Both the position numbers and the translations under genes were made by a program. The notes under the pieces were generated by a model, which did not search any database, was not told the DNA's origin, and saw nothing but the letters and a program-made list of their open reading frames with translations. Shown piece after piece: positions 2,578-33,137 of a stretch of DNA of 33,137 nt (its first letter is position 1; the number at the start of each line of letters is the position of its first letter). Source of the stretch: a virus; IMG/VR virus record IMGVR_UViG_3300048589_000943, positions 1 to 33,137 of that record; one strand, given 5' to 3'.

Positions 2578-3195
2578 TCATGCAGCCCATGCAAGCTGCT
2601 TCAAGTAAGCATCGCGTTCTAACGCATTATTAAATTCGGGCGGTCCGTTTAACGGGAAGATTGAGAAGTCTGTAATGCGCTTGAAAACATATTCACGCCA
2701 GCTCGACTCGATTGACTTGACGATCGCCTCGCGATGAACGCGAAAAGGCGGCTCTAGGAAGCCACTATTCAGTTCGATCGGTACTCTTCGGCTACTCTTG
2801 GATACTAGTCCCGCAGCTTGTTTGCGCCTTCTGTCATGGAGGATTGGCTCCAAAACCGAACTCTTCCTTGGGGCGTGACTATACAGAAACAAGAAGTCCT
2901 CGCCCATAAGAGGTGCATAACTCCGACAAAGATCAAAGGTCGTTTCATGTCCCAGGTCCTGCAGAACTTCACAATTAGGTATCTGCGATGCTATGTACTT
3001 AGCCGAGTCAACCCACTGGAGGTTATTGCAAAGAACCAATATCCTGTTTGCGCCTGCCAAAATCGCCTGTCTTGCGCCGATCTCAAGAAGCGTTCGGCCC
3101 CCAAACTCAATTGCGCACTTTGGGGTGCCAAGCTTCAATCTGGAGCCGTAGCCACCTGCTGCAATCATACAATCGAAGGAAGAACTACTCTTCAT
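2578..3195 (-). CDS. Nucleotidyltransferase-like protein (sugar-nucleotidyltransferase fold), prophage cargo
   Basis: This 205-residue protein has near its N-terminus AAGGYGSRLKLGTPKCAIEF, which fits the GGxGxRL...TPK nucleotide-binding signature of NTP-transferase enzymes that attach nucleotides to sugar phosphates or cofactors. ATG 3195 is chosen because AGGAG lies about 7 bases upstream inside the end of the preceding gene; the two genes overlap by 11 bases and are probably co-translated. The position where the family usually has a metal-binding Asp after a hydrophobic strand reads FLFLYSHAPRKS, with no Asp. The protein may therefore be a divergent or inactive member. Base composition is lower in GC than the phage genes around it. 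The substrate cannot be told. Confidence 0.6.
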   Translation of the reverse strand: MKSSSSFDCMIAAGGYGSRLKLGTPKCAIEFGGRTLLEIGARQAILAGANRILVLCNNLQWVDSAKYIASQIPNCEVLQDLGHETTFDLCRSYAPLMGEDFLFLYSHAPRKSSVLEPILHDRRRKQAAGLVSKSSRRVPIELNSGFLEPPFRVHREAIVKSIESSWREYVFKRITDFSIFPLNGPPEFNNALERDAYLKQLAWAA

Positions 3196-4834: not shown

Positions 4835-4944
4835 CGTGTCGCTTTCGCGGCGCTCGATTTAAGATCTGTGGTCATGATCTCTGCGCCGTATAAGTGCCTG
4901 ACTTGATTGCGGAATTTTCACGTTTTCCGGAGGTTCATTCGGGA

Positions 4945-15753: not shown

Positions 15754-16458
15754 TCACCCCCTCGCCAGCGGCGCCACGTTCCAGAACAGCACCCGCCCCG
15801 GCCCGCGTTTGGCGAGGCACAGCTCCCAAGCCTTCGCGTCATAGTGCGGATCGGCCGGGAAGGGGGCGGCCAGCGCGGCGCGGTCGCTGAACTTGCGGGG
15901 GTGGACGTGGATGGTGGCCCCTGCCACCTCGCGCGGAGTGAGATCGCGCCCGATCTGGACGACATGGCGGCGGGCTTTCGGCCAGGCGGCGGCGAGGCCG
16001 CGGGCGAGGACGCCGGACCCGGCGGCGCACCAGACCTCTTCGGGATCGAAACCGGCCAGTCGGGCAGCGGCGGAGATCGCTTCTACCGCGCCGGGGATTT
16101 CGGCGCCGAAGGGGATCAGGCTGGCACCGGTGTTCCGGCAGTATTCCCGGGCGCGGGATTGCACGACCGACAGATAGCCCGGGCTGATCGGCACAACCTT
16201 TGCGCCCAGGCGGGCGGCCTCAAGCGTGCGCGGATGCGGCCGGGTGCGGGCTGCGACAAAGATCGTGGCGCGCTTGCCAAGGTGCCGGGCGACGGTGGCG
16301 ATCGCCGTCTGGGCGCCGCCCTCGGGCGGGCTCGCATAGACCGCCTCCTGCACCCCGTCGAAGACCTGCGCGATGAAGCGCGCCTTTGTGCCGCCGGGGA
16401 AGAGGTCGTCGCGGACAACGGCAATGCCGTAGTGCATCTCGAGGATCGGGGCGGTCAT
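15754..16458 (-). CDS. PLP-dependent enzyme-like protein, fold type II (short form)
   Basis: This 234-residue protein resembles a shortened fold-type II PLP enzyme (ACC deaminase / D-cysteine desulfhydrase-like). VVRDDLFPGGTKARFIAQVF aligns with the block that holds the PLP lysine, PPEGGAQTAIATVARHLGK with the substrate-binding block, and VWCAAGSGVLARGLAAAWP with the phosphate-binding glycine loop. Typical enzymes have about 330 residues, so a C-terminal portion is missing or reduced. ATG 16458 overlaps the methyltransferase stop (ATGA), indicating a coupled operon. Its place beside a phage DNA methyltransferase raises the possibility of a role in DNA-base modification or in protecting phage DNA, but this is only inference. 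Confidence 0.6.
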   Translation of the reverse strand: MTAPILEMHYGIAVVRDDLFPGGTKARFIAQVFDGVQEAVYASPPEGGAQTAIATVARHLGKRATIFVAARTRPHPRTLEAARLGAKVVPISPGYLSVVQSRAREYCRNTGASLIPFGAEIPGAVEAISAAARLAGFDPEEVWCAAGSGVLARGLAAAWPKARRHVVQIGRDLTPREVAGATIHVHPRKFSDRAALAAPFPADPHYDAKAWELCLAKRGPGRVLFWNVAPLARG

Positions 16459-17435
16459 TGGTCGTCCTCCGGATCGGCTTCGTCGTCGGTGTCCGGCCCT
16501 TCAATCTCGCCGAACTCGACTGGCCCGCAGGCTTCCGTCGCTTTGCGGGGATCGCCCTTGCAGAACACCAGCACGTTCTGGTGGGTCCGGCCGAGCTTGC
16601 GGGCGGCGGTGAACTGGCGGCCGACGCGGATCGGCAGCGAACCCACGGCCGTGACGAGGATCGCGTCGTTGTAGAAGCGGGCACCGGCGGCCTCGAAGGC
16701 TTCGACCGTCAGGCCCGGCAGATTGACGAAGAACCCGTCGGCATCGCGGACATCGCCGATCACCCAGACGGCGAAGCGGTTCGGCCGAAGGCGGGCGACG
16801 GCTTGGGCGATGATCTCGCCCTGAGCCTTCAGAAAATCGGCCAGGGGCATGGTGGAGAGGTCCGAGGGGTCATCGGAATAGCGTTCAAGGTTCCAGTAAG
16901 GCGGGCAGCTGAACACCAGATCGGCCTCGATGCCAGCGGCCAGCCGGGCCAGATCGCGGGAATCTCCGGCGATCCAGCGTGGGGCCGGGTCGCCCGCCAG
17001 ATCGGCCTGCGCCTGGTTCGCGGCCACCTGTTCAGCGCGGAGTTCGGTCCCGACGTAAGGCCGCCCAAGGCGGGCAGCGACGATGCCGCGGACCGAGCCC
17101 CCGGCGAAGGGGTCAAGGATGGTGCCGCCGGGCGGGCAGAACCAGCGATAGGCGATCTCGCACAGGACGGGGTCGAAGATCGACGTGCCAGAGGCCGTAG
17201 GGGCGTCCGAGGCGGCGTAGTGATCGGCCAGGAATTCCTCGGTGGTCAGTTCCCGGCCAAGCTCTGCCTCCTTGGCGCGCTTCTTGGCGTAGAAGGAGGG
17301 GTCGCCAGAGGTGTGCGAGGGCATCAGGACGCCGCCGTTCTGCGGGGCGGGCTGCTGCGGGGTGGGCCCAGCGCCGACGACATGCTCGCCACGCATCAGG
17401 TCTTGGCCGAAGGTGCGGGCGGGGCCCTTAGCCAT
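16455..17435 (-). CDS. Phage DNA methyltransferase (N4/N6 amino type)
   Basis: This 326-residue enzyme has motif IV SCPPYWNLERYSDD and motif I ILDPFAGGSVRGIVAARLG, in the order of beta-class DNA methyltransferases that methylate the exocyclic amino group of adenine or cytosine. GTSIFDPVLCEIAYRWFCPP precedes motif I. ATG 17435 is chosen because GGAGG lies 7 bases upstream, overlapping the end of the ParB-domain gene by 8 bases. In many related prophages the ParB domain and this methyltransferase form one polypeptide; here they are separate but adjacent. The probable role is to protect phage DNA from host restriction. The recognition sequence cannot be read. Confidence 0.85.
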   Translation of the reverse strand: MAKGPARTFGQDLMRGEHVVGAGPTPQQPAPQNGGVLMPSHTSGDPSFYAKKRAKEAELGRELTTEEFLADHYAASDAPTASGTSIFDPVLCEIAYRWFCPPGGTILDPFAGGSVRGIVAARLGRPYVGTELRAEQVAANQAQADLAGDPAPRWIAGDSRDLARLAAGIEADLVFSCPPYWNLERYSDDPSDLSTMPLADFLKAQGEIIAQAVARLRPNRFAVWVIGDVRDADGFFVNLPGLTVEAFEAAGARFYNDAILVTAVGSLPIRVGRQFTAARKLGRTHQNVLVFCKGDPRKATEACGPVEFGEIEGPDTDDEADPEDDQ

Positions 17436-18204
17436 GGGCTGCCTCCTTCCGGGTGCGCTTGCCCTCCTTGTGGCGATAGTGGTCGATGTCCTTGTGGATC
17501 GGCGCCGGGTCGGCGGTGCCCATCCCGGGGACGGCGGGGAAGGATTTTTCGCCCGACCAGCCACGATCCAGCGGGCGGGGCGCGCCGCCGGGGGCAGCGC
17601 CACGGCCGAGTTCTGAACGGATACCCAGATCCAGCCAGGCGCGCTTGCGATCCTGCCACCAGCCCTTGCGGGCCTCGAACACCGAGAAGGGCGGGATGCC
17701 GAAACGTTCGGCCAGGTTGGCCGAGGGGGCAGGGGCAGCGGCGGCGGCGCCGGTGTTTTCGCCCTGGCCGTCACCTTCGCCGCCGCCTATCCCGAACCCC
17801 TCAAACCCGGCCATGATTTCATCGAGTTCGGTCTCATCGAAGCCGATCAGGTCCAGATCGAAATCTGCCTCGCGCAGGGCCGCCAGTTCCGACCGCAGCA
17901 GGTCATCGTCCCACCCGGCGTTTTCGGCGATGCGGTTGTCTGCGATCACCAGCGCCCGGCGCTGGGCCTCGGTCAGATGGTCCAGCACGATCACTGGCAC
18001 CTCGGTCAGGCCCAGCGCCTTCGCGGCCATCAAGCGGCCGTGGCCTGCGATGATCACCTCGTCCTCGCCGATCAGGATCGGGTTGGTGAAGCCGAATTCG
18101 GCGATCGAGGCCGCGATCTGGGCGATCTGATCCTCGCTGTGGGTCCGGGCGTTGCGGATGTAGGGAACCAGCCGGTCAACCGGGAGCATGTCGATCTGAA
18201 GCAT
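17428..18204 (-). CDS. ParB/sulfiredoxin-domain protein, companion of the DNA methyltransferase
   Basis: This 258-residue protein has an N-terminal ParB-like domain (MLPVDRLVPYIRNARTHSED, then FGFTNPILIGEDEVIIAGHG, followed by RLMAAKALGLTEVPVIVLDH) with the GHGR motif. A Gly/Glu linker leads to a C-terminal stretch (RFGIPPFSVFEARKGWWQDR, KRAWLDLGIRSELGRG) usually found between the ParB and catalytic parts of fused phage DNA methyltransferases. ATG 18204 is favoured over upstream starts because those would translate the GC-rich repeat leader. It probably works with the downstream methyltransferase, perhaps for DNA targeting. Confidence 0.8.
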   Translation of the reverse strand: MLQIDMLPVDRLVPYIRNARTHSEDQIAQIAASIAEFGFTNPILIGEDEVIIAGHGRLMAAKALGLTEVPVIVLDHLTEAQRRALVIADNRIAENAGWDDDLLRSELAALREADFDLDLIGFDETELDEIMAGFEGFGIGGGEGDGQGENTGAAAAAPAPSANLAERFGIPPFSVFEARKGWWQDRKRAWLDLGIRSELGRGAAPGGAPRPLDRGWSGEKSFPAVPGMGTADPAPIHKDIDHYRHKEGKRTRKEAAHG

Positions 18205-18251
18205 GGGGCGGGGCCTTTCGGAGGGGGACGGCCGAGGGCTGCGGCCTCCGG

Positions 18252-18294
18252 TGCGCACCCGCGCACCCAAAGCGCGCACCCAAGGCGCGGACCC
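18252..18294 (-). repeat. GC-rich tandem repeats of about 13 bp upstream of the ParB-domain gene
   Basis: Read on the minus strand, the block contains GGGTCCGCGCCTT, then GGGTGCGCGCTTT, then two shortened units GGGTGCGCG and GGTGCGCAC. They lie about 50 bases before the ParB-domain start. They could be protein-binding sites or part of a structured leader. Confidence 0.45.
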
Positions 18295-18331
18295 AGATTT
18301 TTGTTCTGTCACTAGCGGTTAGACGCGCCTA

Positions 18332-21450: not shown

Positions 21451-22680
21451 ATGAAGGCAAAACTCTCTGAACGCGTTGTAAAGGCTGCCGAAATCGGTAG
21501 CCGCAAATACGTCCTCTTCGATGAGGATACCCCCGGCTTCGGGCTCTGCGTCTACACCACCGGGCGCAAAGGGTTCGTGCTGATCTACCGCATCGCGGGC
21601 CAGCAGAAGCGCTTCACGATCGGGGTCTGGCCGACATGGTCGGTCACGGCCGCCCGGGATGAAGCGAAGCGCTTGATCCGCGAAATCGACCGGGGCGACG
21701 ATCCCCTCGACACCCGAAAAGCAGCCCGTGGGGCGCCGACGGTTAAGGAACTGGCCGAGCGTTTCATCGAGGAACACCTGCCAAAGCTGGCCCCGACCAA
21801 CGCCTCGGATCAGAAGAGCATGCTGGAAAAGCTGGTCCTGCCGGAATGGAAGAACCGCAAGGTGGCCGACATCACGCCCACCGACGTCGATCGCCTGCTG
21901 ACCAAGATCGCCGCCGGGCGGGCCCGACCGTCGAAGAAGAAGCCTACCCAGAAGCGGCGCAAGAAACTGGCCCCGCCGAAGCCCACGCCGGTGCGGGCCA
22001 ACCGGGCGGGGGAAATGCTGCGCAAGATGTTCAACCTCGCCATGCTCTGGAAAATGCGCCCCGACAACCCGACCTTCGGCTTCCGCCGTCGGCCCGAGGT
22101 TGCCCGCGATCGGTTCCTGTCTTTCGAGGAGATCGAACGCCTGGCCAACGCCCTGGCCGTCGACGAGGATCAGCGCGCCGCCAGCATCATCCGCCTTTGC
22201 ATGCTGACCGGCGCCCGGCTGGGCGAGGTGCGCACCGCGACCTTCGACCAGTTCAACCTCGATCTGGCCATCTGGACCAAGCAGGCCGCCTACACCAAGC
22301 AGCGCCGCATCCACCGCGTGCCGATCTCGCACGAGGCTGTGGCCCTGATCCGCCTGCGGAGGGAAATCGTGCCGAAAGGCTGCCCCTTCCTCTTCCCTGG
22401 CGACGTGCCCGACCAGCCTGTCGGCGATCCCAAGCGCTTCTGGCCGAAGATGCAGAAGGTCGCCCAGATCCCCGACGTCCGCATCCACGACCTTCGGCAC
22501 ACCTTCGCTTCGCTGCTCGTTTCCGGCGGCGCCTCTCTGGAAATGATCGGCCGCCTCCTCGGTCACACCCAGATCGGCACCACCCAGCGCTACGCCCATC
22601 TCATCGATGCGCCCCTGCGAGCCGGGGTGAACGCTGTCGGCGAGATGCTGAAGCCGCGGTTGCGGGTGGTGGGAGAATAG
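21451..22680 (+). CDS. int: Tyrosine integrase (P4-type, DUF4102-like N-terminus)
   Basis: This 409-residue site-specific recombinase has an N-terminal DUF4102-like arm-binding domain (RKYVLFDEDTPGFGLCVYTT, then RFTIGVWPTWSVTAARDEAK), a central core-binding domain with a Lys-rich insertion (RPSKKKPTQKRRKKLAPPKP) and a complete catalytic set: Arg256 (TGARLGEV), His346 and Arg349 (HDLRHTF), His372 (LGHTQIGTT) and Tyr381 (QRYAHL). ATG 21451 follows AAAGGAG with 7-base spacing. It presumably integrates the element at the initiator-tRNA gene, whose 3' half lies 10 kb to the right. The gene faces the cargo cassette. It is intact. Confidence 0.93.
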   Translation: MKAKLSERVVKAAEIGSRKYVLFDEDTPGFGLCVYTTGRKGFVLIYRIAGQQKRFTIGVWPTWSVTAARDEAKRLIREIDRGDDPLDTRKAARGAPTVKELAERFIEEHLPKLAPTNASDQKSMLEKLVLPEWKNRKVADITPTDVDRLLTKIAAGRARPSKKKPTQKRRKKLAPPKPTPVRANRAGEMLRKMFNLAMLWKMRPDNPTFGFRRRPEVARDRFLSFEEIERLANALAVDEDQRAASIIRLCMLTGARLGEVRTATFDQFNLDLAIWTKQAAYTKQRRIHRVPISHEAVALIRLRREIVPKGCPFLFPGDVPDQPVGDPKRFWPKMQKVAQIPDVRIHDLRHTFASLLVSGGASLEMIGRLLGHTQIGTTQRYAHLIDAPLRAGVNAVGEMLKPRLRVVGE

Positions 22681-22734
22681 AAGCGAACTGAAGGGGGTGT
22701 GCCGAACTCCTCTGAAATTGGGGGCTCTAAGGCG

Positions 22735-22763
22735 TTGTAGTAACGAACATTTCAGGCTAGCAT
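22735..22763 (+). promoter_or_regulatory. Candidate promoter of the defence cassette
   Basis: TTGTAG at 22735-22740 and TAGCAT at 22758-22763 are separated by 17 bases and lie just upstream of the RHH gene. The match to the sigma-70 consensus is only partial, so this is a candidate. Confidence 0.4.
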
Positions 22764-22765
22764 TG

Positions 22766-22781
22766 TGATAGGTTGCTATCA
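22766..22781 (+). promoter_or_regulatory. Candidate operator: TGATAG-N4-CTATCA inverted repeat
   Basis: A perfect 6-bp inverted repeat overlaps the expected transcription start of the candidate promoter and lies 15 bases before the RHH start. RHH regulators commonly bind such sites in their own promoters. Confidence 0.45.
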
Positions 22782-22796
22782 GGGGGCAGTCAGCCG

Positions 22797-22988
22797 ATGG
22801 CGGATCAGTCGAGCTCAAGGCCACAAAAGGCGTCAGACGGAGAAAAGAGGCAAATGCTTCTTCATCTGGAAGCCAATGTAATCAAGAGCTTGAAGAAGGC
22901 TGCGGTTGACCGCGAGTCATCTGCTTCGGCTATTGCGAACGAGGCAATATCTGAGTGGCTGAAAAAGAATGAGTTTCGGCAGGCATAG
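22797..22988 (+). CDS. Ribbon-helix-helix regulator, first gene of the defence cassette
   Basis: This 63-residue protein has the short beta strand and two helices of the ribbon-helix-helix fold (QMLLHLEANVIKSLKKAAVD, then RESSASAIANEAISEWLKK), as in CopG/Arc-type repressors. ATG 22797 is used; TTG 22773 would add eight residues. It lies 38 bases before the DUF499 gene and behind the candidate promoter and operator, so it is likely the autoregulator of the cassette. The GC content is lower than that of the integrase. Confidence 0.7.
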   Translation: MADQSSSRPQKASDGEKRQMLLHLEANVIKSLKKAAVDRESSASAIANEAISEWLKKNEFRQA

Positions 22989-23026
22989 TGCCGCTGCGAG
23001 TGAAAAAGAATAGGATAGGCTAGGGA

Positions 23027-26000
23027 ATGTCGCTTCCAACCATATTCGATGTTTGCGTTCCTCGCGATGACGTGGCCAATGGGTCCGTCACAGAAAGTGA
23101 CTATGCAGCGAACCTTGCCAATGTCTTGAACCGAACAGCACCGCCGGATTACGCGGACGCCCCGACCTTCTTTACGAATACCTTTCCAACTGAGGGACTG
23201 CGTGAGCTTCTGGCTAATGTTTGCGGAAGGCTTTCGGGGCGCGGCGACAGCGTCTCGTCCGTTTTCCGTCTCGATACATCTTATGGTGGCGGTAAAACAC
23301 ATGGCCTGATCGCCTTAATTCATGCCGCAAACGGCATGCAGGGTGTGACCAATACGGCCGAGTTCCTTGATCCGACGCTAGTTCCTTTCGGAAAGGTTAG
23401 AATTGCGGCTTTCGATGGTGAGAATGCAGACCCGTCGAATGGGCGGCCAATGGGCGATGGGGTTCGCGCGCACACCCCTTGGGGCGAGATCGCCTATCAA
23501 CTTGCAGGCCTCGATGGTTACCGGGTTGTGCAGAGATCGGATGAGGATCGTGTCGCGCCTGGTGCCGACACCCTGAAAGAGCTGTTTGGCGGCGAGCCTG
23601 TTCTGATCGTTCTGGATGAACTCGGCGAATACCTTCGACGCGTCCAAGGGATGGGTGGCCGTGATCAGTTGACAGCCTTCTTAAAGGCTTTGCTTACGGC
23701 GATCGAGAGCTCGCCGAGAGCCGCAATCGTCTATACCTTGGCTGTCCGTTCAGATGGCAAGGGGATCGACGCATTCGCTGACGAAAACGAGTTCCTTTCG
23801 CGGTCCATGGCCGAGCTTGAGAGCGTGTCTGGACGAAAGGCAACAAACCTCAACCCGACCAAGGACGATGAAACCGCCAAGGTTATTCGTCGTCGTCTGT
23901 TCGCCAAGATCGACCAAGCGAAGGCCGCCGAGCTGATCGATGCCTATCGTGTTCTGTGGGCCAATAATCGCGACAACCTCTCAGAAGATGCGCGGCGGTC
24001 AACGACGGCGGCAGAGTTTGCAGACACCTTCCCGTTCCACCCGGACGTCCTCGACACATTGACCGGCAAGACCGCGACGCTTGGCGGCTTCCAGCGTGTT
24101 AGGGGCATGTTGCGGATTCTCGCAAAGACCGTGGCGTCTGTTTGGGCAACTCGCCCCGCAGATGCCTTTGCCATTCATCTTCATCACGTCGATCTGGGTT
24201 CAGAAGCGATAAGACGAGAGTTCACCACCCGTTTGCAGCAGGTCGCCTACGTTCCAGCAATCCTGAACGATATTGCAGGCACCACTGAAAAGCCTGCATT
24301 GGCACAGGAACTCGATGCCAAGCATTACAAGGGGCTGCTGCCTTACGGCACGTACACCGCGCGGACAATCTTCATTCACACTCTTGCGTTCAACAACGAT
24401 CTCAAGGGTTTGGCACCGGATCATTTGAGATATTCGATCCTGAACCCAGCTTCCGATCTGTCGTTCATCGATGACGCTCGCGCGAAGTTCAGGGCAGACT
24501 CTGCCTATCTGGACGACCGTCCCTCAGCTCCGTTGCGCTTCAACGCTGAGGCCAATCTCACGCAGGTAATCGGCCGCGAAGAGAAGAACATCGATCCCGG
24601 GGAAGCCCGGTCGCAGCTCGCAGATCGGATAAGATCGATCTTCGGCGGCCAATCCTTTGACCTTGTGCCCTTCCCGGGCGGTCCCTGGGACGTTCCGGAC
24701 GATGTTTCCGACGGGAAGCCTCGCTTGGTTCTACTGTCCCACGATGCTCTCGAAATTGGCCCAGACCTTCGCGAAGTGCCCGAGATCATCGGTAGGATGT
24801 TTGAGCGGAAGGGAGCCGACGGCAACGGTTTGAGGTCGCTTCGGAACAATCTGGTCTTTGCGGTTGCCGATGAGACCAAGGTGAACGAGATGAAGCGCGC
24901 CATTGTGCGCCGCCTCGCGCTTCAAGAACTGAAGCGGCCCGATCGGCTGCGTGAGCTAGCCGAGCATCAGCAGGCCAAGGTTCTGGAACTAGAGAAGAAG
25001 TCTGAAACCGAAGCTGCCATTGCCATCCAGCAATGCTATCGGCATGTTCTTTATCCGTCGCGTACGTCTCTTGGCGGAGCGGGAACCATCCAGCTCGCCC
25101 ATGCCGTGATCGACATCCAGAACGCGTCCGAGCGGCCGGGTTCTGGCCAGCTTCAGATTGTTCGGCAGCTGCAAAGCCACAACAAAGTTCGCGATGCGTC
25201 CGATGCGCCAGACTCTCCGTCCTACATTCGTGACCGGACGCCGCTGAAAAAGGGGCAGATCAGCTCCCGCGACCTTCGCGATGAGTTCCGACGTGACCCG
25301 TCCCTGTCGATCCTCTTGTCCGATGATGTGTTCATCAAGGCGGTCCGCAAAGGGATCGAGGAGGGCGTTTACGTCTACAAGCGCGGCGATCTTTTGGCTG
25401 GGCCGGGTGATCCGATCCCAACGATCAAGATTGACGAAGAAACCATGATCTTCACGATGGAATTCGCGAAGAACAAAGGTATCTGGCCGCGCCCAGCACC
25501 GGCACCGGCGGCGCAGCCTGCGGCGGTCGGGGGTGGTGGTGCGGCAGTTGTGACGGGGCCCACGCCGACAGGAGGTGGTGACTTTCCGCCGGTCGGGCCT
25601 TCCCCTGAGGCAGTGGCTGGAGAACGACCGCAGCCCCACCTTGCCGGTGCGAAAGTATTCACGGCCGAGGGCGTCCTGAAAGAAGCCCTACGCCGCGTGA
25701 TCGAACAGGCCAAGACCGCCAAGCTGGACAAGGTCGATCGCATCGTGATCCGGCTGTTCGAATATGGCGATGCCTTCAAGCTGGTGCCGATCGCGAACAC
25801 GGTCGCCGGGGCAAAGCGGGGCGTGCGGCTTGAGGGCAGCTTCATGACTGCCCAGGACAGCGAGTTTGAGTTCGAATTCAATGGCACGGCGCAGGATGCG
25901 TCGACCATGAAGGACTATCTCGAACCCCAATTCCGCGCCGCGAAAGAGACCGATCTGAAGGCCAGTATTTCGTTTGATTTCGACGCCGGGCTCGCGCTGG

Positions 26001-26089
26001 ATGGCGACGCGGCGGACAAGTTCGTCGAAAAGCTGACGCGTTTTGCCAGCGCGGCGGCCTATGTCGAAGCAACGGCTGAGGTGAAGTGA
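23027..26089 (+). CDS. DUF499 family AAA+ ATPase, defence cassette
   Basis: This 1020-residue protein has Walker A SYGGGKTHGLIALIHA (residues about 86-100) and Walker B VLIVLDELGEYLRR (Asp197, Glu198), typical of DUF499 ATPases. After the ATPase core comes a long helical region, then a Pro/Ala/Gly-rich linker (about residues 825-870) and a C-terminal domain (LKEALRRVIEQAKTAKLDKV, FEFEFNGTAQDASTMKDYLE). DUF499 proteins are found beside DUF1156 methyltransferases and helicases in predicted anti-phage clusters, and resemble BREX-type ATPases in overall role. The purine-rich GGATAGGCTAGGGA precedes ATG 23027. The stop overlaps the next gene's upstream start (TGATG). Confidence 0.88.
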   Translation: MSLPTIFDVCVPRDDVANGSVTESDYAANLANVLNRTAPPDYADAPTFFTNTFPTEGLRELLANVCGRLSGRGDSVSSVFRLDTSYGGGKTHGLIALIHAANGMQGVTNTAEFLDPTLVPFGKVRIAAFDGENADPSNGRPMGDGVRAHTPWGEIAYQLAGLDGYRVVQRSDEDRVAPGADTLKELFGGEPVLIVLDELGEYLRRVQGMGGRDQLTAFLKALLTAIESSPRAAIVYTLAVRSDGKGIDAFADENEFLSRSMAELESVSGRKATNLNPTKDDETAKVIRRRLFAKIDQAKAAELIDAYRVLWANNRDNLSEDARRSTTAAEFADTFPFHPDVLDTLTGKTATLGGFQRVRGMLRILAKTVASVWATRPADAFAIHLHHVDLGSEAIRREFTTRLQQVAYVPAILNDIAGTTEKPALAQELDAKHYKGLLPYGTYTARTIFIHTLAFNNDLKGLAPDHLRYSILNPASDLSFIDDARAKFRADSAYLDDRPSAPLRFNAEANLTQVIGREEKNIDPGEARSQLADRIRSIFGGQSFDLVPFPGGPWDVPDDVSDGKPRLVLLSHDALEIGPDLREVPEIIGRMFERKGADGNGLRSLRNNLVFAVADETKVNEMKRAIVRRLALQELKRPDRLRELAEHQQAKVLELEKKSETEAAIAIQQCYRHVLYPSRTSLGGAGTIQLAHAVIDIQNASERPGSGQLQIVRQLQSHNKVRDASDAPDSPSYIRDRTPLKKGQISSRDLRDEFRRDPSLSILLSDDVFIKAVRKGIEEGVYVYKRGDLLAGPGDPIPTIKIDEETMIFTMEFAKNKGIWPRPAPAPAAQPAAVGGGGAAVVTGPTPTGGGDFPPVGPSPEAVAGERPQPHLAGAKVFTAEGVLKEALRRVIEQAKTAKLDKVDRIVIRLFEYGDAFKLVPIANTVAGAKRGVRLEGSFMTAQDSEFEFEFNGTAQDASTMKDYLEPQFRAAKETDLKASISFDFDAGLALDGDAADKFVEKLTRFASAAAYVEATAEVK

Positions 26090-26121
26090 TGCGCGTGCCA
26101 AGCCGGAAGGAAGACCTCTCC

Positions 26122-26568
26122 ATGATTTCGCGAACCCAACCGCAGTATGAATTGCGCGCACGGCGCCACGGCCCCGGGGATACCGAGATCGAGATCTGGC
26201 AGCTTCCCTCCCTTGCCACGCCGCAGATCGTCATTCCGCTCCGGCTGGCCGGGTTGCGTGGGCGCAATCTGGAACTGACCGAACACCGCGTTCTGCGGCG
26301 ATTGAAGGAAAGCGGGATCAGGCTGGACCTGTTGCCGATCGAGGGGATGGGATCGGCGCTGAACGAGGAAACGGCACTGCGCCTCGCGCTGTTGTTCCGC
26401 ACCCTCGCGCCAATGCGCAACCGTGACAACATGCGCCTGGTCGCCGATGGGATCGAAGCGATGGGCAAGGAAGAGGCGGGATACTGGCTGGGCATGTCTG
26501 TCCATCGCAAGAACCCGCGCCGGGTGCTGACCGCCCTGCGCATCCTGCTGACCGATCCGGCGAAATAA
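26122..26568 (+). CDS. Unknown 148-aa defence-cassette protein
   Basis: This 148-residue basic protein begins MISRTQPQYELRARRHGPGD and continues with WQLPSLATPQIVIPLRLAGL, RGRNLELTEHRVLRRLKESG and ALNEETALRLALLFRTLAPM. The ATG at 26122 has AGGAAG 8 bases upstream; ATG 26089, coupled to the DUF499 stop by TGATG, adds 11 residues and is an alternative. I do not recognise a catalytic motif. Its conserved place between the DUF499 ATPase and the DUF1156 methyltransferase, with immediate overlap at both ends, indicates a core part of the system, perhaps an adaptor. GC content is higher than in most of the flanking cassette genes. Confidence 0.65.
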   Translation: MISRTQPQYELRARRHGPGDTEIEIWQLPSLATPQIVIPLRLAGLRGRNLELTEHRVLRRLKESGIRLDLLPIEGMGSALNEETALRLALLFRTLAPMRNRDNMRLVADGIEAMGKEEAGYWLGMSVHRKNPRRVLTALRILLTDPAK

Positions 26569-29495
26569 TGAAAGAAGAGAAGCCTATGTCCGATGTTCGC
26601 CTGATTGAGCGCTGGTTGCCGATTGCTGAGCTTGGCATTGAAAGCGTGCGCGAGCGTGGAATGTCCACTGCACTTCCGCCGATTAACTTTCTTCATGTGT
26701 GGTGGGCACGGCGGCCGCTTCTTGCAGCCCGCGCCGCAATTGTTGCAAGCGTATTGCCTGCTGATGTGGATCACAGCTTATTTCTTCTGGCGCTTGGTGT
26801 TGGGGGCAACCCAAAGCAAGCAAAGCAACGCTTGGAAAAAGAGAAACGCAACGGAAAACGTGGGGAAGTTCCTGCGTTTGATTACCCACGTGCTTTCACT
26901 GTTCACGCAGGAGAAGCGTTCCGGCGTATTGATCCAACGAAGAAATTCCTGAAAGGAGTAACAATTCTTGATCCAACTGCTGGCGGTGGGTCAATTCCCT
27001 TCGAGTCAATGCGGCTAGGTGCAACAACTGTAGCCAATGATTTGAACCCTGTGGCAGCAACAATCTTGAAGGCAACGGTTGAGCTTCCGGGTCAGTTTGG
27101 AAGCCTTGTGTTGGATGATTTTCAGGAGATATTTGCGGAGTTTCGACGTAGGGCAGAACCAAAATTTGAAGGCCTCTATGCGGATGAGCCCAATGACGTA
27201 CGTGTTGAGGGCTATCTTTGGGCGCGATCGGTGCGCTGTCCCTACTGTTCTGGGGAAATACCTCTGTCTCCAAATTGGGTGCTAACGCCGGATGGTGTTG
27301 GAATTAAGCTTAAACCGAGGATCGAGGTAAGCCGTGGAGATGCAGGTAGGGTCTGCGACTTCGAGATTGTGCGTTCATCAAGTGAGCACTCTGTTGGGAC
27401 AGTGAGTGGAGGAGACGCCGTTTGTCCATTCTCTGACTGCAACCGGATCGTCGATGGTGACGCTATTAAAGCGCAGGCGCAAGCTGGTGATATGGGTGAT
27501 CGACTTTTCGGCGTTGTTTTCAAGAAGAGAGTGAAGAAGCAAACAAAGACAGGTAAATTGCGCGAGGCTTGGGAGAGAGATTACCGTGCTCCGAACTTGG
27601 GTGACGATAATTCTGCAAAGCTTGCCGCAATGATTGAGGAAAAGCAGGACGAATGGTTGGCGCTAGATATTCTTCCTACTGAGAAAATTGGTGATCCATC
27701 AAATTATGATCGCGGGCATCGGCTCTATGGGATGAACCACTGGCGAGATATGTTCTCTAATCGCCAGCTGCTGGGTCATTGTTTCGCAGTAGAAGCCTTC
27801 TGTGAAATGATTGCGCAGGACAAAGAAAAGGGCGATCTCACGGATCGGAGAAAAGCAGCCTATTTGTATTTGTCATTTGCGTTCTCCAAGCTTTTGAACT
27901 GGAATGCTCGGTCGTCTAGCTGGAATGTCCAAGCGAGCACGATGCGCTCGGTGTTCGATCGGCACGACTTCGCCTTCAAGTGGTCCTATGCAGAGATGCC
28001 GTTCTTTAAAACAGGTGGCGGATTTGACTGGGCAGGTGGACAGATTTTCGACAGTCTGAAGGGAATTCTTAAGCTGCTGCCTGTCGGAGATGACTTGTTG
28101 AAGGACGACAAGCTTGGGTCTGTTTCTGTGATCTGTGGAGACGGTAGTAACTTAGCAACGATCTTGGATGGTTCGGTTGATGCCGTGGTAATGGACCCGC
28201 CTTACGGCGCCAATGTGATGTATGCCGAGCTTTCGGATTTCTTCTATGTCTGGCTAAAGAGAACTGCGGGGCTTGTATATCCGGAGTTGTTCACACGACG
28301 GCTGACTGACAAGTCTTCGGAGGCCGTTGCCAACAAGGCAATGTTTAAGGGACAAAAAGGCGCGGATGCCCTCGCTAACCGAGACTATCAGGAGAAGATG
28401 GCCGCGATTTTCGCTGAGTGCCGTCGCGTCCTGAAGCCGAATGGCATTATGACCGTGATGTTCACGCACAAGGAAACCAGCGCCTGGGACGCGCTGACCA
28501 CCGGCCTAATCGAGGCCGGGTTCATCATCACTGCTTCTTGGCCCGTGAATACTGAGGCCGAGGGCTCGCTCCACATCAAAGACAAGGCCGCCGCAAACTC
28601 CACGATCTTCCTCGTCTGCCGCCCGCGCCCGGCCGAGCAGAGCGACGAGACGACCTATTGGGAAGACGTCGAGCCCTTGGTGGCGCAGGCCGTCCGCACC
28701 AGGGTGGAAGAGTTCCAGAAGGCCGGGATCGGCGGCGTTGACCTCTACCTCGCCTCCTTCGGCCCGGCGCTGGAAGAGTTTTCGCGCCACTGGCCACTGA
28801 AGCGCGGCACCCCGCGGCCCGAGCCGCTGGCCAAAAAGCGCAGGAAACAGGCGGAACTATTCGAGGAAGAGTTCGATCCCTACGCCGTGACGCCGGAAGA
28901 CGCCCTCGACGCAGCCCGGCGCGAGGTGAAGACATGGCGTCTGAACCAGCTGACCCACACCAAGGGCCGCGCCGATCTCGACCCGACGACCTCGTGGTTC
29001 GTGCTGGCTTGGGATGCCTTCAAGGCGCCGGTCTTTAGCTATGACGAAGGCCTGCGTCTGGCGCGTGCCGTCGGCGCCGATTTGGAGGGCCAGTTGATCG
29101 GCCGTCTGTGCGAGAAGAAGGGATCGGACATCAAGCTGTGGGACAGCGCCACACGCGCTGCGAAAAGCGGCCTCGGCCCGGCTGACGGGTCACGTGCGAT
29201 GATCGACGCGATCCACCACGCCGCCCACCGAGGCCGGACGCGCACGCTGGAAGGCGCGCTGGATCTGCTGAAGGACGCGGGGCTGGAAAACGATCCGCAG
29301 TTCCTGGCGGCGCTGGAGGCCGTTCTGGAAGTGTTGCCGCCATCGCCGGGCTTTGTCGGGTTCGACGTGGCGACCGGCGATGCCAAATCCGCCGCGGATG
29401 ACTTCGACGCGCTTGAGAAGCTTCGGCGCCTGGCGTTCTCGGACAAGGTGGATGAACCCCAACAGCTGTCCCTGTTTGCGGAGGAGGCCGTTTGA
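26568..29495 (+). CDS. DUF1156 DNA methyltransferase, defence cassette
   Basis: This 975-residue protein begins with the DUF1156 module (LIERWLPIAELGIESVRERG, then LPPINFLHVWWARRPLLAAR). Methyltransferase motif I ILDPTAGGGSIPFES lies near residue 132, a zinc-ribbon-like insertion (RCPYCSGEIPL, CPFSDCNRIV) follows, and motif IV is DPPYGANVMYAEL (Asp543-Tyr546). It is expected to methylate an amino group of adenine or cytosine in host DNA. The start is coupled to the previous stop (TAATG); ATG 26586 is an alternative. Codon use changes within the gene: the first about 1.85 kb is of moderate GC and the rest is strongly GC-rich. The stop overlaps the helicase TTG start. Confidence 0.9.
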   Translation: MKEEKPMSDVRLIERWLPIAELGIESVRERGMSTALPPINFLHVWWARRPLLAARAAIVASVLPADVDHSLFLLALGVGGNPKQAKQRLEKEKRNGKRGEVPAFDYPRAFTVHAGEAFRRIDPTKKFLKGVTILDPTAGGGSIPFESMRLGATTVANDLNPVAATILKATVELPGQFGSLVLDDFQEIFAEFRRRAEPKFEGLYADEPNDVRVEGYLWARSVRCPYCSGEIPLSPNWVLTPDGVGIKLKPRIEVSRGDAGRVCDFEIVRSSSEHSVGTVSGGDAVCPFSDCNRIVDGDAIKAQAQAGDMGDRLFGVVFKKRVKKQTKTGKLREAWERDYRAPNLGDDNSAKLAAMIEEKQDEWLALDILPTEKIGDPSNYDRGHRLYGMNHWRDMFSNRQLLGHCFAVEAFCEMIAQDKEKGDLTDRRKAAYLYLSFAFSKLLNWNARSSSWNVQASTMRSVFDRHDFAFKWSYAEMPFFKTGGGFDWAGGQIFDSLKGILKLLPVGDDLLKDDKLGSVSVICGDGSNLATILDGSVDAVVMDPPYGANVMYAELSDFFYVWLKRTAGLVYPELFTRRLTDKSSEAVANKAMFKGQKGADALANRDYQEKMAAIFAECRRVLKPNGIMTVMFTHKETSAWDALTTGLIEAGFIITASWPVNTEAEGSLHIKDKAAANSTIFLVCRPRPAEQSDETTYWEDVEPLVAQAVRTRVEEFQKAGIGGVDLYLASFGPALEEFSRHWPLKRGTPRPEPLAKKRRKQAELFEEEFDPYAVTPEDALDAARREVKTWRLNQLTHTKGRADLDPTTSWFVLAWDAFKAPVFSYDEGLRLARAVGADLEGQLIGRLCEKKGSDIKLWDSATRAAKSGLGPADGSRAMIDAIHHAAHRGRTRTLEGALDLLKDAGLENDPQFLAALEAVLEVLPPSPGFVGFDVATGDAKSAADDFDALEKLRRLAFSDKVDEPQQLSLFAEEAV

Positions 29496-32400
29496 GCCTG
29501 CTGCGCGACACCGCTTGGCGCCTGAAATACACGCCGGACGATGGCGACCTCATCCGGCTATTCTACGTGCCAGCTCTAAGATCGGCGACGCGCTATGACC
29601 GGCTGACGGGCTATTTCTCGTCTCGCGCGCTTGCATTGGCGGCGCGGGGCATTGAAGGGCTTGTCCTCAACAACGGCAAGATGCGGCTGATCGTGGGCTG
29701 CACGCTGGGCGAGGAGGACGTCGAGGCGATCGAACGTGGCGAGGCCCTTCGGGATGCTGTCGAGCGGACGATCCAGAGGATGCCGCCTCTAACGGGCGAT
29801 CCCCGCACCGTCGATGCCTTGGAACTTGTCGCGTGGATGGTGGCCCAAGGCTATCTTGACGTGAAGCTTGCGGTTCCTTGTGACGCGAACCGCCGCCCGA
29901 TCCGCGATGACAGCATCTTCCACGAGAAGACTGGCATCATCGAGGACAAGACCGGAGATCGGCTCGCATTCAATGGCAGCATCAACGAAACCGAGTACGG
30001 CTGGACGCGAAACTGGGAAAGCTTCAACGCTTTCACGTCGTGGAACGATGGGCCCCGTGTGGACGACGAAGAGGCTAGTTTCGCCAAGCTCTGGGCGAAC
30101 CAAGCCAAGCGGGCAATCACACTGGACGTGCCGACTGCGCTACGCGAGCAGCTGCTCACCTTCCTGCCTGATCCCGAGCAACTGCCCAAGCGAATGCAGG
30201 AGCATGATGACGAGGGCAAGGAGGATATAGGGGCTCGCAGCGCTGTGCGGCGCACTGGCCAGGGTGATCCAACAGCGCCCAGCGCCGCGCCAGTTCTTTC
30301 GATCGACGAAGAACGCCAGGCAGTTTGGGAGCGTATCGCAAATGCCGCGAACGATCCAAATGGCGGCGACCGAGTAGGAGAGGCCACCTCCGCGGTCGTC
30401 CCTTGGCCCCATCAGGTGCGGGCCTTCCATCGTTTGTACGATCAATGGCCGCCGAAGCTTCTGATTGCTGATGAGGTCGGTCTGGGGAAAACGGTTCAGG
30501 CCGGTCTCCTGCTTCGGCAGTCATGGCTGTCCGGGCGCGTGAAGCGCGCCCTTGTTCTTGCGCCGAAGAACGTCTGTAGGCAGTGGCAGATCGAACTTCG
30601 TGAGAAGTTCAATCTCAACTGGCCAATATATGATGGGCACCGGCTGGTTTGGTATCGATCGCCAGCCCGCGATCACAGTGCCGAGAAAGCGGTATCGCGC
30701 GACGAGTGGCATCGTGAGCCGTTCGTGATCATGTCGAGCCATCTTGCGCGTCGGCGAGAACGGCAAACAGAGATTTTGGACTCTGCCGATCCGTGGGATT
30801 TGGTTGTGCTGGACGAAGCCCACCATGCTCGGACCAAGGGTGCAGGAACAGCGCAGGCTAAGGGCAGCAATCGGCTGCTTCAGTTGATGCGCTTGCTGAA
30901 GAGAAGGACCGAGGGCTTGGTATTGCTTACGGCAACGCCCCTCCAGGTCCACGCTACCGAACTTTGGGACCTGCTTGATCTGCTCGGAGTGCCTCCGGAG
31001 TGGTCCTCGGATGCCTTTGTTCGCTTCTTCTCAGAGGTTGCGAAGGAACCTGTCAGCAACGACGGACTTGATTGGCTTGCTGCGCTTTTCCGTGCGCATG
31101 AGGCGCACTTTGGGGAAATCCCTTGGGAGTCGGCGCAAGGCAAGACTGGTCTAAGCGGCCTGAAGACCAAGAAGGTCCTGCGAGCCCTGCGAGACAACGC
31201 GGCAACCCCCAGGCGCCAACTTTCCCAAGAAGAGAGGCGCGCCGCTCTCACGATCCTGAAGAAAGCAACCCCGGTAAGTGCCTTGGTTTCGCGCCACACG
31301 CGCGAACTGCTGCGCAAATACTTCAAGGCCGGGAAGCTTTCGACGCCAGTTGCAACCCGCCAAGTCGAAGACCGGTTTATCCCCTTGTCCCAAGAGGAGA
31401 GGGATCTCTACCGGCAAGTCGAGACCTACATTTCTCAAACCTACAATGCCTCGGCGGCCGATGCGCGAAATGCGGTTGGCTTTGTGATGACGATTTATCG
31501 CCGCCGGTTGGCCTCCAGCTTCCATGCCTTGCGTATGACTATGGAAAAAAGAAGGGGCGGCGTGGGCGACGTGCTTTCTGCTGCCGACGAGGCGCGGATT
31601 GATGAGAACGTCGCTGACCAAGTCGAAGCGGGTGAAGAAATCGATGCGGAAAGCGTGTCTGAAGACGAGCGGCGAGCGCTTGCGTTTGAAGAGGTCGAGA
31701 CGATCGACGAGATAGTTGAAGAGATTGGGCGGCTGCCGACGGATACCAAGGCCGTTCATCTTTCCAACGTCTTGGGCGAACTGAAGGCATCGGGCTATTC
31801 GCAGGTGATGGTCTTCACGCAGTTTACGGACACCATGGACTATCTGCGCGATCAAGTCGTTGCTGCGGGGTATTCGGTGATGTGCTTCTCTGGACGCGGC
31901 GGAGAAGTGCAAGGGTCCGATCGCGCCTGGAGCCTCATTTCAAGGGACGAGGTCAAGCGCAGGTTCAAGGAAGGTCGTGCTGAAATCCTTGTTTGCACTG
32001 ACGCTGCGGCTGAGGGGCTGAACTTCCAGTTTTGTGGTGCGCTGATAAATTACGACATGCCTTGGAACCCGATGCGAGTGGAGCAGCGGATCGGCCGCAT
32101 CGATCGACTTGGGCAGCGGTTCTCCGATATTCGTATCGTCAATCTGCACTACGAAGACACGGTCGAGGCTGACGTCTATCGCGCCTTGCGCAGCAGGATT
32201 TCCGTGTTTGAGAGTGTCGTTGGTGGTCTGCAGCCGATCTTGACCAGGTTGCCAAAACTAATCGAAGAAACCGTTCTTTCGAAGGCAACGACTGATGATG
32301 CTCGTCGCGACGAGGCGCTGGGCCGTCTGGAGGCTGAACTTTCGTTGGGAGAAGGAACATCGATCGACCTTGATGACTTCTCCGACGAAGAACTAACCTT

Positions 32401-32656
32401 CCCGCCTCGCTCTGAGCCAGCCCTGAACTTGTCAGACCTGAAGGCTGTTCTCGATCGACCCGCCTTGTTGCCTCGTGGCACAGAAGCAGTAAAGCTTGAC
32501 GCGAAGGACTATAGGTTCACCGATGGTTTCTTGCCTCAAGCGGTGCGCGTGACAACCGATCGGGAATTCTATGAGCTTCACTCGGAAAGTGTCGAGCTTT
32601 GGACTCCTGGCAGCCCAACGTTTCCCGATCTTGCTATGTATCGGAGGACGACTTGA
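29492..32656 (+). CDS. PLD-domain SNF2-family helicase, defence cassette
   Basis: This 1054-residue protein joins an N-terminal phospholipase-D-like domain to an SNF2/DEAH helicase. The PLD motif IFHEKTGIIEDKTGDRLAFN has His144 and Lys146, followed by Gly162-Ser163-Ile164-Asn165. Helicase motifs are Walker A EVGLGKTVQAG (Lys333), DEAH at 441-444, motif III LLTATPLQVH and the late block TDAAAEGLNFQFCGALINYD plus QRIGRIDRLGQ near residue 865. The PLD domain is a candidate nuclease and the motor may translocate on or remodel DNA. TTG 29492 overlaps the methyltransferase stop and has GGAGGAGG upstream. It is the last gene of the cassette. In DISARM related activities are on separate PLD and helicase proteins. 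Confidence 0.9.
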   Translation: MSLLRDTAWRLKYTPDDGDLIRLFYVPALRSATRYDRLTGYFSSRALALAARGIEGLVLNNGKMRLIVGCTLGEEDVEAIERGEALRDAVERTIQRMPPLTGDPRTVDALELVAWMVAQGYLDVKLAVPCDANRRPIRDDSIFHEKTGIIEDKTGDRLAFNGSINETEYGWTRNWESFNAFTSWNDGPRVDDEEASFAKLWANQAKRAITLDVPTALREQLLTFLPDPEQLPKRMQEHDDEGKEDIGARSAVRRTGQGDPTAPSAAPVLSIDEERQAVWERIANAANDPNGGDRVGEATSAVVPWPHQVRAFHRLYDQWPPKLLIADEVGLGKTVQAGLLLRQSWLSGRVKRALVLAPKNVCRQWQIELREKFNLNWPIYDGHRLVWYRSPARDHSAEKAVSRDEWHREPFVIMSSHLARRRERQTEILDSADPWDLVVLDEAHHARTKGAGTAQAKGSNRLLQLMRLLKRRTEGLVLLTATPLQVHATELWDLLDLLGVPPEWSSDAFVRFFSEVAKEPVSNDGLDWLAALFRAHEAHFGEIPWESAQGKTGLSGLKTKKVLRALRDNAATPRRQLSQEERRAALTILKKATPVSALVSRHTRELLRKYFKAGKLSTPVATRQVEDRFIPLSQEERDLYRQVETYISQTYNASAADARNAVGFVMTIYRRRLASSFHALRMTMEKRRGGVGDVLSAADEARIDENVADQVEAGEEIDAESVSEDERRALAFEEVETIDEIVEEIGRLPTDTKAVHLSNVLGELKASGYSQVMVFTQFTDTMDYLRDQVVAAGYSVMCFSGRGGEVQGSDRAWSLISRDEVKRRFKEGRAEILVCTDAAAEGLNFQFCGALINYDMPWNPMRVEQRIGRIDRLGQRFSDIRIVNLHYEDTVEADVYRALRSRISVFESVVGGLQPILTRLPKLIEETVLSKATTDDARRDEALGRLEAELSLGEGTSIDLDDFSDEELTFPPRSEPALNLSDLKAVLDRPALLPRGTEAVKLDAKDYRFTDGFLPQAVRVTTDREFYELHSESVELWTPGSPTFPDLAMYRRTT

Positions 32657-32712
32657 CCGTCTTGCTCTCAGTTGTGGATCGCAAGAACCAGCGGCTGAGG
32701 CGGGGTTTCCGG

Positions 32713-32729
32713 GTCAACAATAGGTCAAC
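32713..32729 (+). repeat. GTCAAC-N5-GTCAAC direct repeat left of the att site
   Basis: GTCAAC at 32713-32718 and 32724-32729, spaced by 11 bases, lies in the 216-base gap between the helicase stop and the tRNA remnant. That gap holds no gene that I can support. The site may be an integrase or excisionase arm site. Confidence 0.5.
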
Positions 32730-32872
32730 CTGCCGACCTACCTCGTTCACGGTTTGAGCTACAGCGGCTTCCGTCGGCTGCGGTTGAGAGCGGTGAGGTA
32801 ATCAAGCGAGATCAACGGGTTGGCGCGTAAGTGGTTGAAATCTAAGGGTCCGATGTTCTCCTTTTGGTCCGC

Positions 32873-32917
32873 CTCATAACCTGAAGGCCGCAGGTTCAAA
32901 TCCTGCCCCCGCAACCA
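32873..32917 (+). pseudogene. 3' half of initiator tRNA-Met (CAU), likely right attachment site of the element
   Basis: From 32873 the sequence matches the anticodon loop (CTCATAA), the 3' anticodon stem, an intact T arm (GCAGG TTCAAAT CCTGC) and the acceptor 3' strand ending in CCA. The 5' half does not fit: the bases before the loop cannot pair with the 3' anticodon stem. This is the mark left by a tyrosine integrase recombining within the anticodon region. The intact gene should lie at the other end of the element, beyond position 1. Confidence 0.8.
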
Positions 32918-32946
32918 AAAATCTCAAATATATCAGTTACTTCAAA

Positions 32947-32970
32947 GCCGAGCACAACGCTCGGCTTTTG
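32947..32970 (+). terminator. Rho-independent terminator after the tRNA remnant
   Basis: GCCGAGC at 32947-32953 pairs perfectly with GCTCGGC at 32959-32965 around ACAAC, followed by TTTTGT. This would be the original tRNA gene's terminator, now serving the cassette side. Confidence 0.8.
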
Positions 32971-32985
32971 TCGTTCCAAATTCTT

Positions 32986-33002
32986 GTCAACACCTGGTCA
33001 AC
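32986..33002 (+). repeat. GTCAAC-N5-GTCAAC direct repeat right of the att site
   Basis: GTCAAC at 32986-32991 and 32997-33002 repeats the architecture and 11-base spacing of 32713-32729 on the other side of the tRNA remnant. It may be part of the attachment-site complex. Confidence 0.45.
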
Positions 33003-33054
33003 GTTTTTCGAGGCCCCCTGCGACGGGGCGGATAATCGTCGCTAGAGGCATCCG

Positions 33055-33137
33055 TCACTTCGGAAGATCCTCCCGAAACCGGTCCATCTGGTGCATCCGC
33101 TCATGCAGGATCGTCACGATGCCGACGTCCCCGTTCG
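33055..33137 (-). CDS. ParE-like toxin, C-terminal end (cut by window edge)
   Basis: The last 26 codons of a minus-strand gene end at TGA 33055-33057 and read NGDVGIVTILHERMHQMDRF, then REDLPK. The ILHERMHQMDRF block is typical of the C-terminus of RelE/ParE-superfamily toxins of type II toxin-antitoxin pairs. The rest, and its antitoxin, are outside the window. It lies beyond the att remnant, so it likely belongs to the flanking chromosome or to another element in the same tRNA hotspot. Confidence 0.55.
   Translation of the reverse strand, partial: NGDVGIVTILHERMHQMDRFREDLPK

What the first reader, a model, noticed from the sequence alone, without database searches (positions are those of the whole stretch)
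22735..32656. Complete DUF499-DUF1156-PLD/SNF2 anti-phage cassette carried between integrase and att site
Five genes in one direction with overlapping ends (RHH, DUF499 ATPase, 148-aa unknown, DUF1156 methyltransferase, PLD-SNF2 helicase) form a modification-based predicted defence system. It sits between int and the tRNA-derived att site, so it appears to be phage or island cargo. DUF499/DUF1156 clusters are known as predicted or anti-phage-associated, but the mechanism is not settled. This version fuses the PLD and helicase activities and has no separate endonuclease, so the PLD domain is the likely effector.
Basis: partly seen in the sequence, partly recalled or inferred. Interest (0 to 1): 0.75.

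Follow-up and report, generated by a model that had tools for sequence, protein, structure and literature searches.

The report
Prophage-borne BREX-related defence operon, new subtype
A bacterial virus integrated in a Rhodobacterales-type host carries a four-gene DNA-modifying immune operon of a broadly distributed but so far unnamed subtype, in which one half of the DNA-marking enzyme is swapped between otherwise near-identical copies, apparently to change which DNA sequence is protected and attacked.

Summary
The cassette is real and intact: RHH regulator, DUF499 AAA+ ATPase, a small protein, DUF1156 N6-adenine methyltransferase and a PLD(HKD)-SNF2 fusion, on one strand, between a tyrosine integrase and the displaced 3' half of a tRNA-fMet gene. 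It belongs to the DUF499-centred "BREX-related" (BR) systems. It most resembles Type-2 BR (same gene order, HKD-helicase fusion), but fails two Type-2 tests: no DUF3780 by Pfam, and DUF499 outside the DUF3780 clade. (1) The "unknown" protein is DUF7680; in 70 of 73 loci it lies directly after DUF499, and the order recurs in bacteria and haloarchaea. Weak profile hits and matching predicted secondary structure suggest a remote DUF3780. No held paper mentions DUF7680. (2) The methyltransferase N-half (motif I plus target-recognition insert) is an exchanged module: 45-46% identical where the rest of the operon is 96-99%, and nearly uncorrelated with other components over 38 operons. That implies the methyltransferase sets specificity for both marking and restriction. 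(3) Two related prophages (phage genes about 44-68% identical) carry the cassette at 79-99% identity, so it is mobile cargo. Defence and methylation remain untested. New variant of a known kind.

The parts
21451..22680 (+). tyrosine integrase of the carrying prophage
   Evidence: PF00589 2e-20, Arm-DNA-bind_3 1e-16; phrog_1 integrase 7e-66; the C-terminal 145 aa are 79% identical beside the cassette in L006
22797..22988 (+). Arc-like ribbon-helix-helix protein, likely operon regulator
   Evidence: phrog_2639 2e-5; conserved just upstream of DUF499 in 6 close relatives, 97% in R. amnigenus
23027..26089 (+). DUF499 AAA+ ATPase (BrxC-like/HmaC-like), Walker A K90, Walker B D197-E198
   Evidence: PF04465 3e-36; PADLOC HmaC 3e-91; motifs conserved
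26122..26568 (+). DUF7680 protein (148 aa; possible upstream GTG start at 26086), probable remote DUF3780
   Evidence: PF24728 2e-44; directly after DUF499 in 70 of 73 loci; predicted fold
26568..29495 (+). DUF1156 N6-adenine methyltransferase: motif I LDPTAGGGS (aa 134-142), Zn ribbon C224/C227/C286/C291, DPPY (aa 543-546)
   Evidence: PF06634 1e-13; HmaB 8e-69; motif counts over 38 homologues
26650..28160 (+). exchanged N-half module of the methyltransferase (motif I plus target-recognition insert, ending just before DPPY)
   Evidence: about 95% DNA identity to L005/L006 before 26600, about 50% from 26660 to 28160, rising again after 28160; uncoupled from the other parts
29492..32656 (+). 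PLD(HKD) nuclease fused to SNF2 helicase; HKD H144 K146 D152 S163 N165 E166; helicase motifs DEVGLGKT, DEAHH, QRIGRIDRLGQ
   Evidence: PF00176/PF00271; NF042964 347 bits; residues invariant in 38/38
32873..32917 (+). att: displaced 3' half of the host tRNA-fMet gene
32918..33137 (.). probable host DNA downstream of the att site
   Evidence: 32867-33027 is 86% identical to the tRNA-fMet end plus downstream sequence in a genome of the same family

Best explanation
It is an intact BREX-related (DUF499-centred) restriction-modification-like immune operon carried as cargo at the att end of a tailed prophage, and it belongs to a distinct DUF7680 subtype close to Type-2 BR. Most likely working: the DUF1156 methyltransferase reads an asymmetric DNA motif with its insert TRD and marks host DNA with N6-methyladenine. 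The DUF499 ATPase, with the small DUF7680 protein as a sequence-independent adaptor, assembles on unmethylated copies of the motif recognised through the same methyltransferase. The PLD-SNF2 protein then translocates on and cuts the DNA with its HKD nuclease, which has one motif per chain and so probably acts as a dimer. The RHH protein probably represses the operon. Shown here: gene content and order, intact catalytic residues, constant synteny, exchange of the methyltransferase N-half, and cargo behaviour. Inferred: methylation, restriction, the motif-reading role, the dimer, the adaptor role, and repression.
For: Family and motif assignments. Conserved order DUF499-DUF7680-MTase-PLD/SNF2 in bacteria and haloarchaea. 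HKD, SNF2, DPPY and Walker residues invariant or nearly so. MTase N-half exchanged while DUF499, DUF7680, helicase and MTase C-half stay 96-99% identical to L005/L006; the AU test rejects the window+L005+L006 clade for the N-half (p 0.00025) but not for the C-half (p 0.175). If another subunit read the target sequence it should co-vary with the N-half; it does not, or only weakly. In BREX, PglX engineering changes both the phages targeted and the motifs methylated (PMC11341690). Related prophages carry the cassette.
Against: No experiment on this cassette. PLDc_2 is below Pfam's cut-off. The DUF7680-DUF3780 link is not supported by hhalign (probability 0.6%, within shuffles); it rests on weak Pfam cross-hits, secondary-structure order and synteny. 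The SNF2 part keeps a weak correlation with the N-half (rho 0.31, 1 of 300 permutations as high), so some co-adaptation is possible. The TRD assignment of the N-half is by analogy with published models; the methyltransferase was not modelled here.
Confidence: 0.72

Rival explanations
1. Canonical Type-2 BR system whose DUF3780 has merely diverged past recognition; nothing is distinct about it except sequence drift.
For: Same gene order, same HKD-SNF2 fusion, small protein in the same slot with the same predicted order of strands and helices; 7 of 35 DUF3780 proteins hit the DUF7680 Pfam model, best E 0.006.
Against: In the DUF499 tree all DUF3780 systems form one clade (support 100) and the DUF7680 systems lie outside it together with Type-1 (unrooted, DUF7680 group support 74). 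DUF7680 systems themselves span Actinomycetota, cyanobacteria and haloarchaea, so this is an old separate branch rather than local drift.
Confidence: 0.3
2. The methyltransferase N-half diverges by unusually fast point evolution under phage pressure, not by exchange of a module.
For: Target-recognition domains are known to evolve fast (stated with references in PMC12839542).
Against: Abrupt DNA boundaries in operons otherwise about 91-93% identical; average N-half identity over all pairs (53%) is like that of DUF499 (56%) and the helicase (57%), so it is not faster overall; tree conflict; L002 and L003 share a 99% N-half although their DUF499 proteins are 88% identical.
Confidence: 0.1
3. The PLD-SNF2 protein acts by abortive infection (indiscriminate nucleic-acid cleavage after sensing) rather than by motif-directed restriction of incoming DNA.
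For: A paper titled as reporting a predicted helicase/nuclease that confers phage resistance by abortive infection is cited in PMC12839542 (reference 106; seen only as a citation).
Against: The operon regularly brings a methyltransferase with an exchanged specificity half, which points to self/non-self marking; no published test on this subtype was found.
Confidence: 0.2
4. The operon is an anti-superinfection device for the prophage rather than a host island riding along.
For: Three related prophages carry it (window, R. amnigenus, Maliponia), in the window and Maliponia next to a recombinase.
Against: The same operon also sits on Sinorhizobium, Aminobacter and Nostoc plasmids and in chromosomes. 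Both uses can be true.
Confidence: 0.45

Closest known systems
Type-2 BREX-related (BR) system (Rakesh and Krishnan 2026, PMC12839542; NCBIfam NF042962-NF042964)
   Same: DUF499 ATPase, DUF1156 N6-MTase with insert TRD, N-terminal HKD fused to SNF2 helicase, a small gene between DUF499 and MTase, same gene order
   Different: Small gene is DUF7680, not DUF3780; DUF499 falls outside the DUF3780 clade; all NCBIfam equivalogs far below their cut-offs (208/1200, 215/1000, 347/1100 bits)
Type-1 BR / Hma system (PADLOC HmaABC, PMC8565338)
   Same: The DUF499 protein scores best against HmaC (305 bits) and the MTase against HmaB (231 bits) in PADLOC
   Different: Type-1 loci examined have the opposite order helicase-MTase-DUF499 and no small gene in the window's slot; published Type-1 helicases carry a C-terminal PD-(D/E)XK nuclease rather than an N-terminal HKD (PMC12839542)
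BREX Type 3 / Type-3 BR
   Same: Homologous ATPase, N6-MTase and SNF2 helicase (PMC12839542)
   Different: No PglZ and no iSTAND/BrxB gene in this operon
Type I BREX PglX (PMC11341690)
   Same: Methyltransferase acting as specificity factor for both methylation and defence (by inference here)
   Different: PglX carries motif recognition at its C-terminus; here the candidate TRD is inside the N-half and is exchanged together with motif I

Membership tests
DUF499-centred BREX-related (BR) systems | tripartite core: DUF499 AAA+ ATPase, DUF1156 N6-MTase, SNF2-family helicase in one operon | tested here: met
Type-2 BR system | HKD nuclease at the N-terminus of the SNF2 helicase | tested here: met
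   HxK..D..GSxNE invariant 38/38; PLDc_2 sub-threshold
Type-2 BR system | standalone DUF3780 gene in the core locus | tested here: not met
   Pfam finds DUF7680, not DUF3780; homology of the two is likely but unproven
Type-2 BR system | DUF499 within the Type-2 clade | tested here: not met
   DUF3780 loci form a clade (support 100) that excludes the window (unrooted, quick tree)
[quoted passage not shown]
   no dedicated TUDOR search was made; Pfam lists none
Type-1 BR / Hma | operon order helicase-MTase-DUF499 without a small core gene between DUF499 and MTase | tested here: not met
   order here is DUF499-DUF7680-MTase-helicase; Type-1 examples
Type-1 BR / Hma | C-terminal active PD-(D/E)XK nuclease on the helicase | tested here: inconclusive
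   no Pfam nuclease hit at the C-terminus; no structure was made
Type-3 BR / BREX | PglZ in the core locus | tested here: not met
   no PglZ among the five ORFs
DUF7680 (PF24728) | score over Pfam's gathering cut-off | tested here: met
   151.8 bits against 24
DUF3780 (remote homology of the small protein) | profile-profile similarity and same fold | tested here: inconclusive
   7/35 DUF3780 proteins hit PF24728 (best E 0.006) and strand/helix order is the same, but hhalign is not above shuffles

The most novel reading that the evidence does not exclude
DUF7680 systems are a separate, ancient subtype of BREX-related immunity found in bacteria and archaea, in which one half of the methyltransferase is an interchangeable specificity cartridge that retargets both self-marking and restriction, while DUF499, the DUF7680/DUF3780-fold adaptor and the HKD-SNF2 effector stay fixed.
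Probability: 0.55. Interest if true: 0.65.

Novelty: new variant of a known kind. Interest (0 to 1): 0.52.

Why it matters
It names a core component (DUF7680) of a broadly distributed immune operon whose large proteins NCBIfam scores far below its cut-offs and whose small gene has no PADLOC hit. It offers a candidate homologue for DUF3780, for which PMC12839542 reported no definitive homologues. The natural module exchange gives matched pairs (window and R. amnigenus, 97-99% identical outside the N-half) that make the open question of which subunit supplies target specificity in DUF499 systems directly testable.

Tried and rejected
Relatives of DUF7680 among IMG/VR contigs: none, whereas DUF3780 occurs in 25, 17 of them with the full operon. 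Phage GenBank records: none for DUF7680, one weak helicase hit. E. coli genomes: no near match. Fold search of the DUF7680 model against PDB and BFVD: nothing significant. PDB sequence search: nothing convincing for DUF7680 or DUF3780. hhalign DUF7680 vs DUF3780: not above shuffles, so homology is stated only as likely. Rfam (22600-33137) and ARAGORN (whole window) found no complete RNA gene; promoter and terminator scans were at chance. Considered and rejected: DISARM and Dpd (hits are to the shared SNF2 core), full BREX (no PglZ), and a broken remnant (all frames open).

Full report
What is there. The cassette lies at 22797-32656 on the + strand: RHH, DUF499, a 148-aa protein, DUF1156 methyltransferase and PLD-SNF2, with short or overlapping junctions. 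Pfam, PADLOC and NCBIfam agree on the three large proteins. NCBIfam's curated equivalogs of the DUF3780 type are hit far below their cut-offs (208 of 1200, 215 of 1000, 347 of 1100 bits), so this is not simply a copy of the catalogued system. The small protein is Pfam DUF7680 (152 bits, cut-off 24). Catalytic positions are intact: in 38 complete homologous operons H144, K146, D152, S163, N165 and E166 of the HKD domain, the SNF2 motifs, DPPY of the methyltransferase and the Walker motifs of DUF499 are invariant or nearly so.

Where it sits. The record is a 33-kb IMG/VR virus record. Its left half encodes terminase, portal, major head/protease and tail proteins. The cassette lies between a tyrosine integrase and a 45-base copy of the 3' half of tRNA-fMet at 32873-32917. 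The end of the window matches DNA in 51 of 61 genomes of the R. amnigenus family, mostly at this tRNA half, and seven of eight fetched matches scanned contain an intact tRNA-Met(cat); the sequence after it resembles host DNA downstream of that tRNA. The other att copy is outside the record. Two related prophages carry the cassette too. In R. amnigenus the phage proteins are about 44-68% identical to the window's, but the cassette is 97-99% identical outside the methyltransferase N-half. In Maliponia aquimaris phage proteins are about 44-66% identical and the cassette (outside that half) 82-97%; there it lies between a large serine recombinase and host hydantoinase genes. The cassette therefore moves between prophages, and in two of them lies beside the recombinase. 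It is also on Sinorhizobium, Aminobacter and Nostoc plasmids.

What the small gene is. A search brought in 70 genome loci; with three plasmid loci, 70 of 73 have DUF7680 within 1 kb after DUF499 on the same strand; two exceptions begin near contig ends and the third (L029) has a partial second copy in between. The order DUF499-DUF7680-MTase-PLD/SNF2 also occurs in Rhodococcus, cyanobacteria and haloarchaea. In a sample of 299 Pseudomonadota genomes DUF7680 occurs in 3 besides the query genome and DUF3780 in 1; in 146 cyanobacteria, 9 besides the query genome. No held paper mentions DUF7680. Three lines suggest it is a remote DUF3780. First, 7 of 35 DUF3780 proteins hit the DUF7680 Pfam model (best E 0.006), the only other family hit by more than one of them. 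Second, AlphaFold models have the same order of elements: DUF7680 E-E-E-H-E-H-H-H-H (pLDDT 90), DUF3780 E-E-E-H-E-H-H-H-H (pLDDT 84). Third, both fill the same slot. Against it, hhalign is not above shuffled controls, and the two models were not superposed.

Classification. DUF499-centred systems were grouped into BR Types 1-3 in PMC12839542. The window shares gene order and the HKD-SNF2 fusion with Type-2. Type-1 examples have the reverse order and no small gene in that slot. In an unrooted DUF499 tree DUF3780 and Type-1 systems are each a clade (100) and DUF7680 systems a group between them (74); in the helicase tree DUF3780 and Type-1 are again clades and DUF7680 is not resolved as one. I therefore file it as a BR system of a separate DUF7680 subtype next to Type-2, not as a Type-2 member.

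The exchanged half. Against R. amnigenus (L005) and a Rhodobacteraceae MAG (L006), DUF499, DUF7680, helicase and MTase C-half are 96-99% identical, but the MTase N-half is 45-46% identical. DNA identity falls from about 95% to about 50% near 26600-26660 and rises again after 28160. Over 38 operons (703 pairs) the N-half shows rho -0.09 to 0.25 with the other parts, which show 0.62-0.85 among themselves. In 31 pairs with DUF499 above 85%, N-half identity averages 62% against 89-95% for DUF7680, MTase C-half, HKD and SNF2, and 83% for the DUF499 C-terminus. Overall N-half identity (53%) is like DUF499 (56%), so it is exchanged rather than faster. The AU test rejects window+L005+L006 as a clade for the N-half (p 0.00025) and not for the C-half (p 0.175). 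Close pairs of DUF3780 systems show a similar drop.

Mechanism. In PMC12839542 the recognition domain of these enzymes is an insert after core strand 2, which would place it in this half. Because no other component follows the N-half, with only weak residual coupling to SNF2 (rho 0.31), the methyltransferase is the best candidate for the sequence reader in both modification and restriction, as shown for BREX PglX (PMC11341690). DUF7680 does not co-vary with the N-half (rho -0.02), which argues against a motif-specific reader and for an adaptor or sequence-independent reader. These are inferences; no activity was tested.

Noticed in passing
window 16455-18312 (-): A ParB-like ORF (17428-18312) and an N6/N4 methylase ORF (16455-17774) match successive parts of one PHROG family (phrog_498, DNA methyltransferase), so the phage appears to carry its own ParB-methyltransferase in two overlapping frames, split or frameshifted.
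   Followed up: partly
window 2578-6189: A G+C dip (0.49-0.50 at 3001-5000, against about 0.67) holds a 549-aa ORF with only a weak O-methyltransferase hit and a MobA-like nucleotidyltransferase ORF (2578-3213), next to a DDE transposase at 5107-6189: likely inserted cargo.
   Followed up: partly
L013, L015, L026, L033, L047, L052-L054, L056, L058, L061, L066, L068, L070, L071: More than half of the complete DUF7680 operons have extra DNA, up to about 4 kb, between DUF7680 and MTase or between MTase and helicase (17 of 39 are compact); VapBC toxin-antitoxin genes sit there in the Nostoc plasmid L004 and, in DUF3780 systems, in L082, L084 and L090.
   Followed up: partly
L091-L115: DUF3780 occurs in 25 IMG/VR viral contigs, 17 with a full DUF499-DUF3780-MTase-HKD/SNF2 set in the fetched DNA: Type-2 BR systems are recurrent cargo of records classed as viral.
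   Followed up: partly
L029 7156-7401 and 9848-10456: A DUF7680 locus with a partial second DUF7680 copy directly after DUF499 and the full copy further downstream, a possible duplication around an insertion.
   Followed up: no
L144 8363-16775: Roseomonas mucosa plasmid with a divergent DUF7680 gene (27.5 bits), MTase and HKD-SNF2 protein, but no annotated DUF499 gene in the stretch, and an MBL-fold hydrolase gene between MTase and helicase.
   Followed up: no
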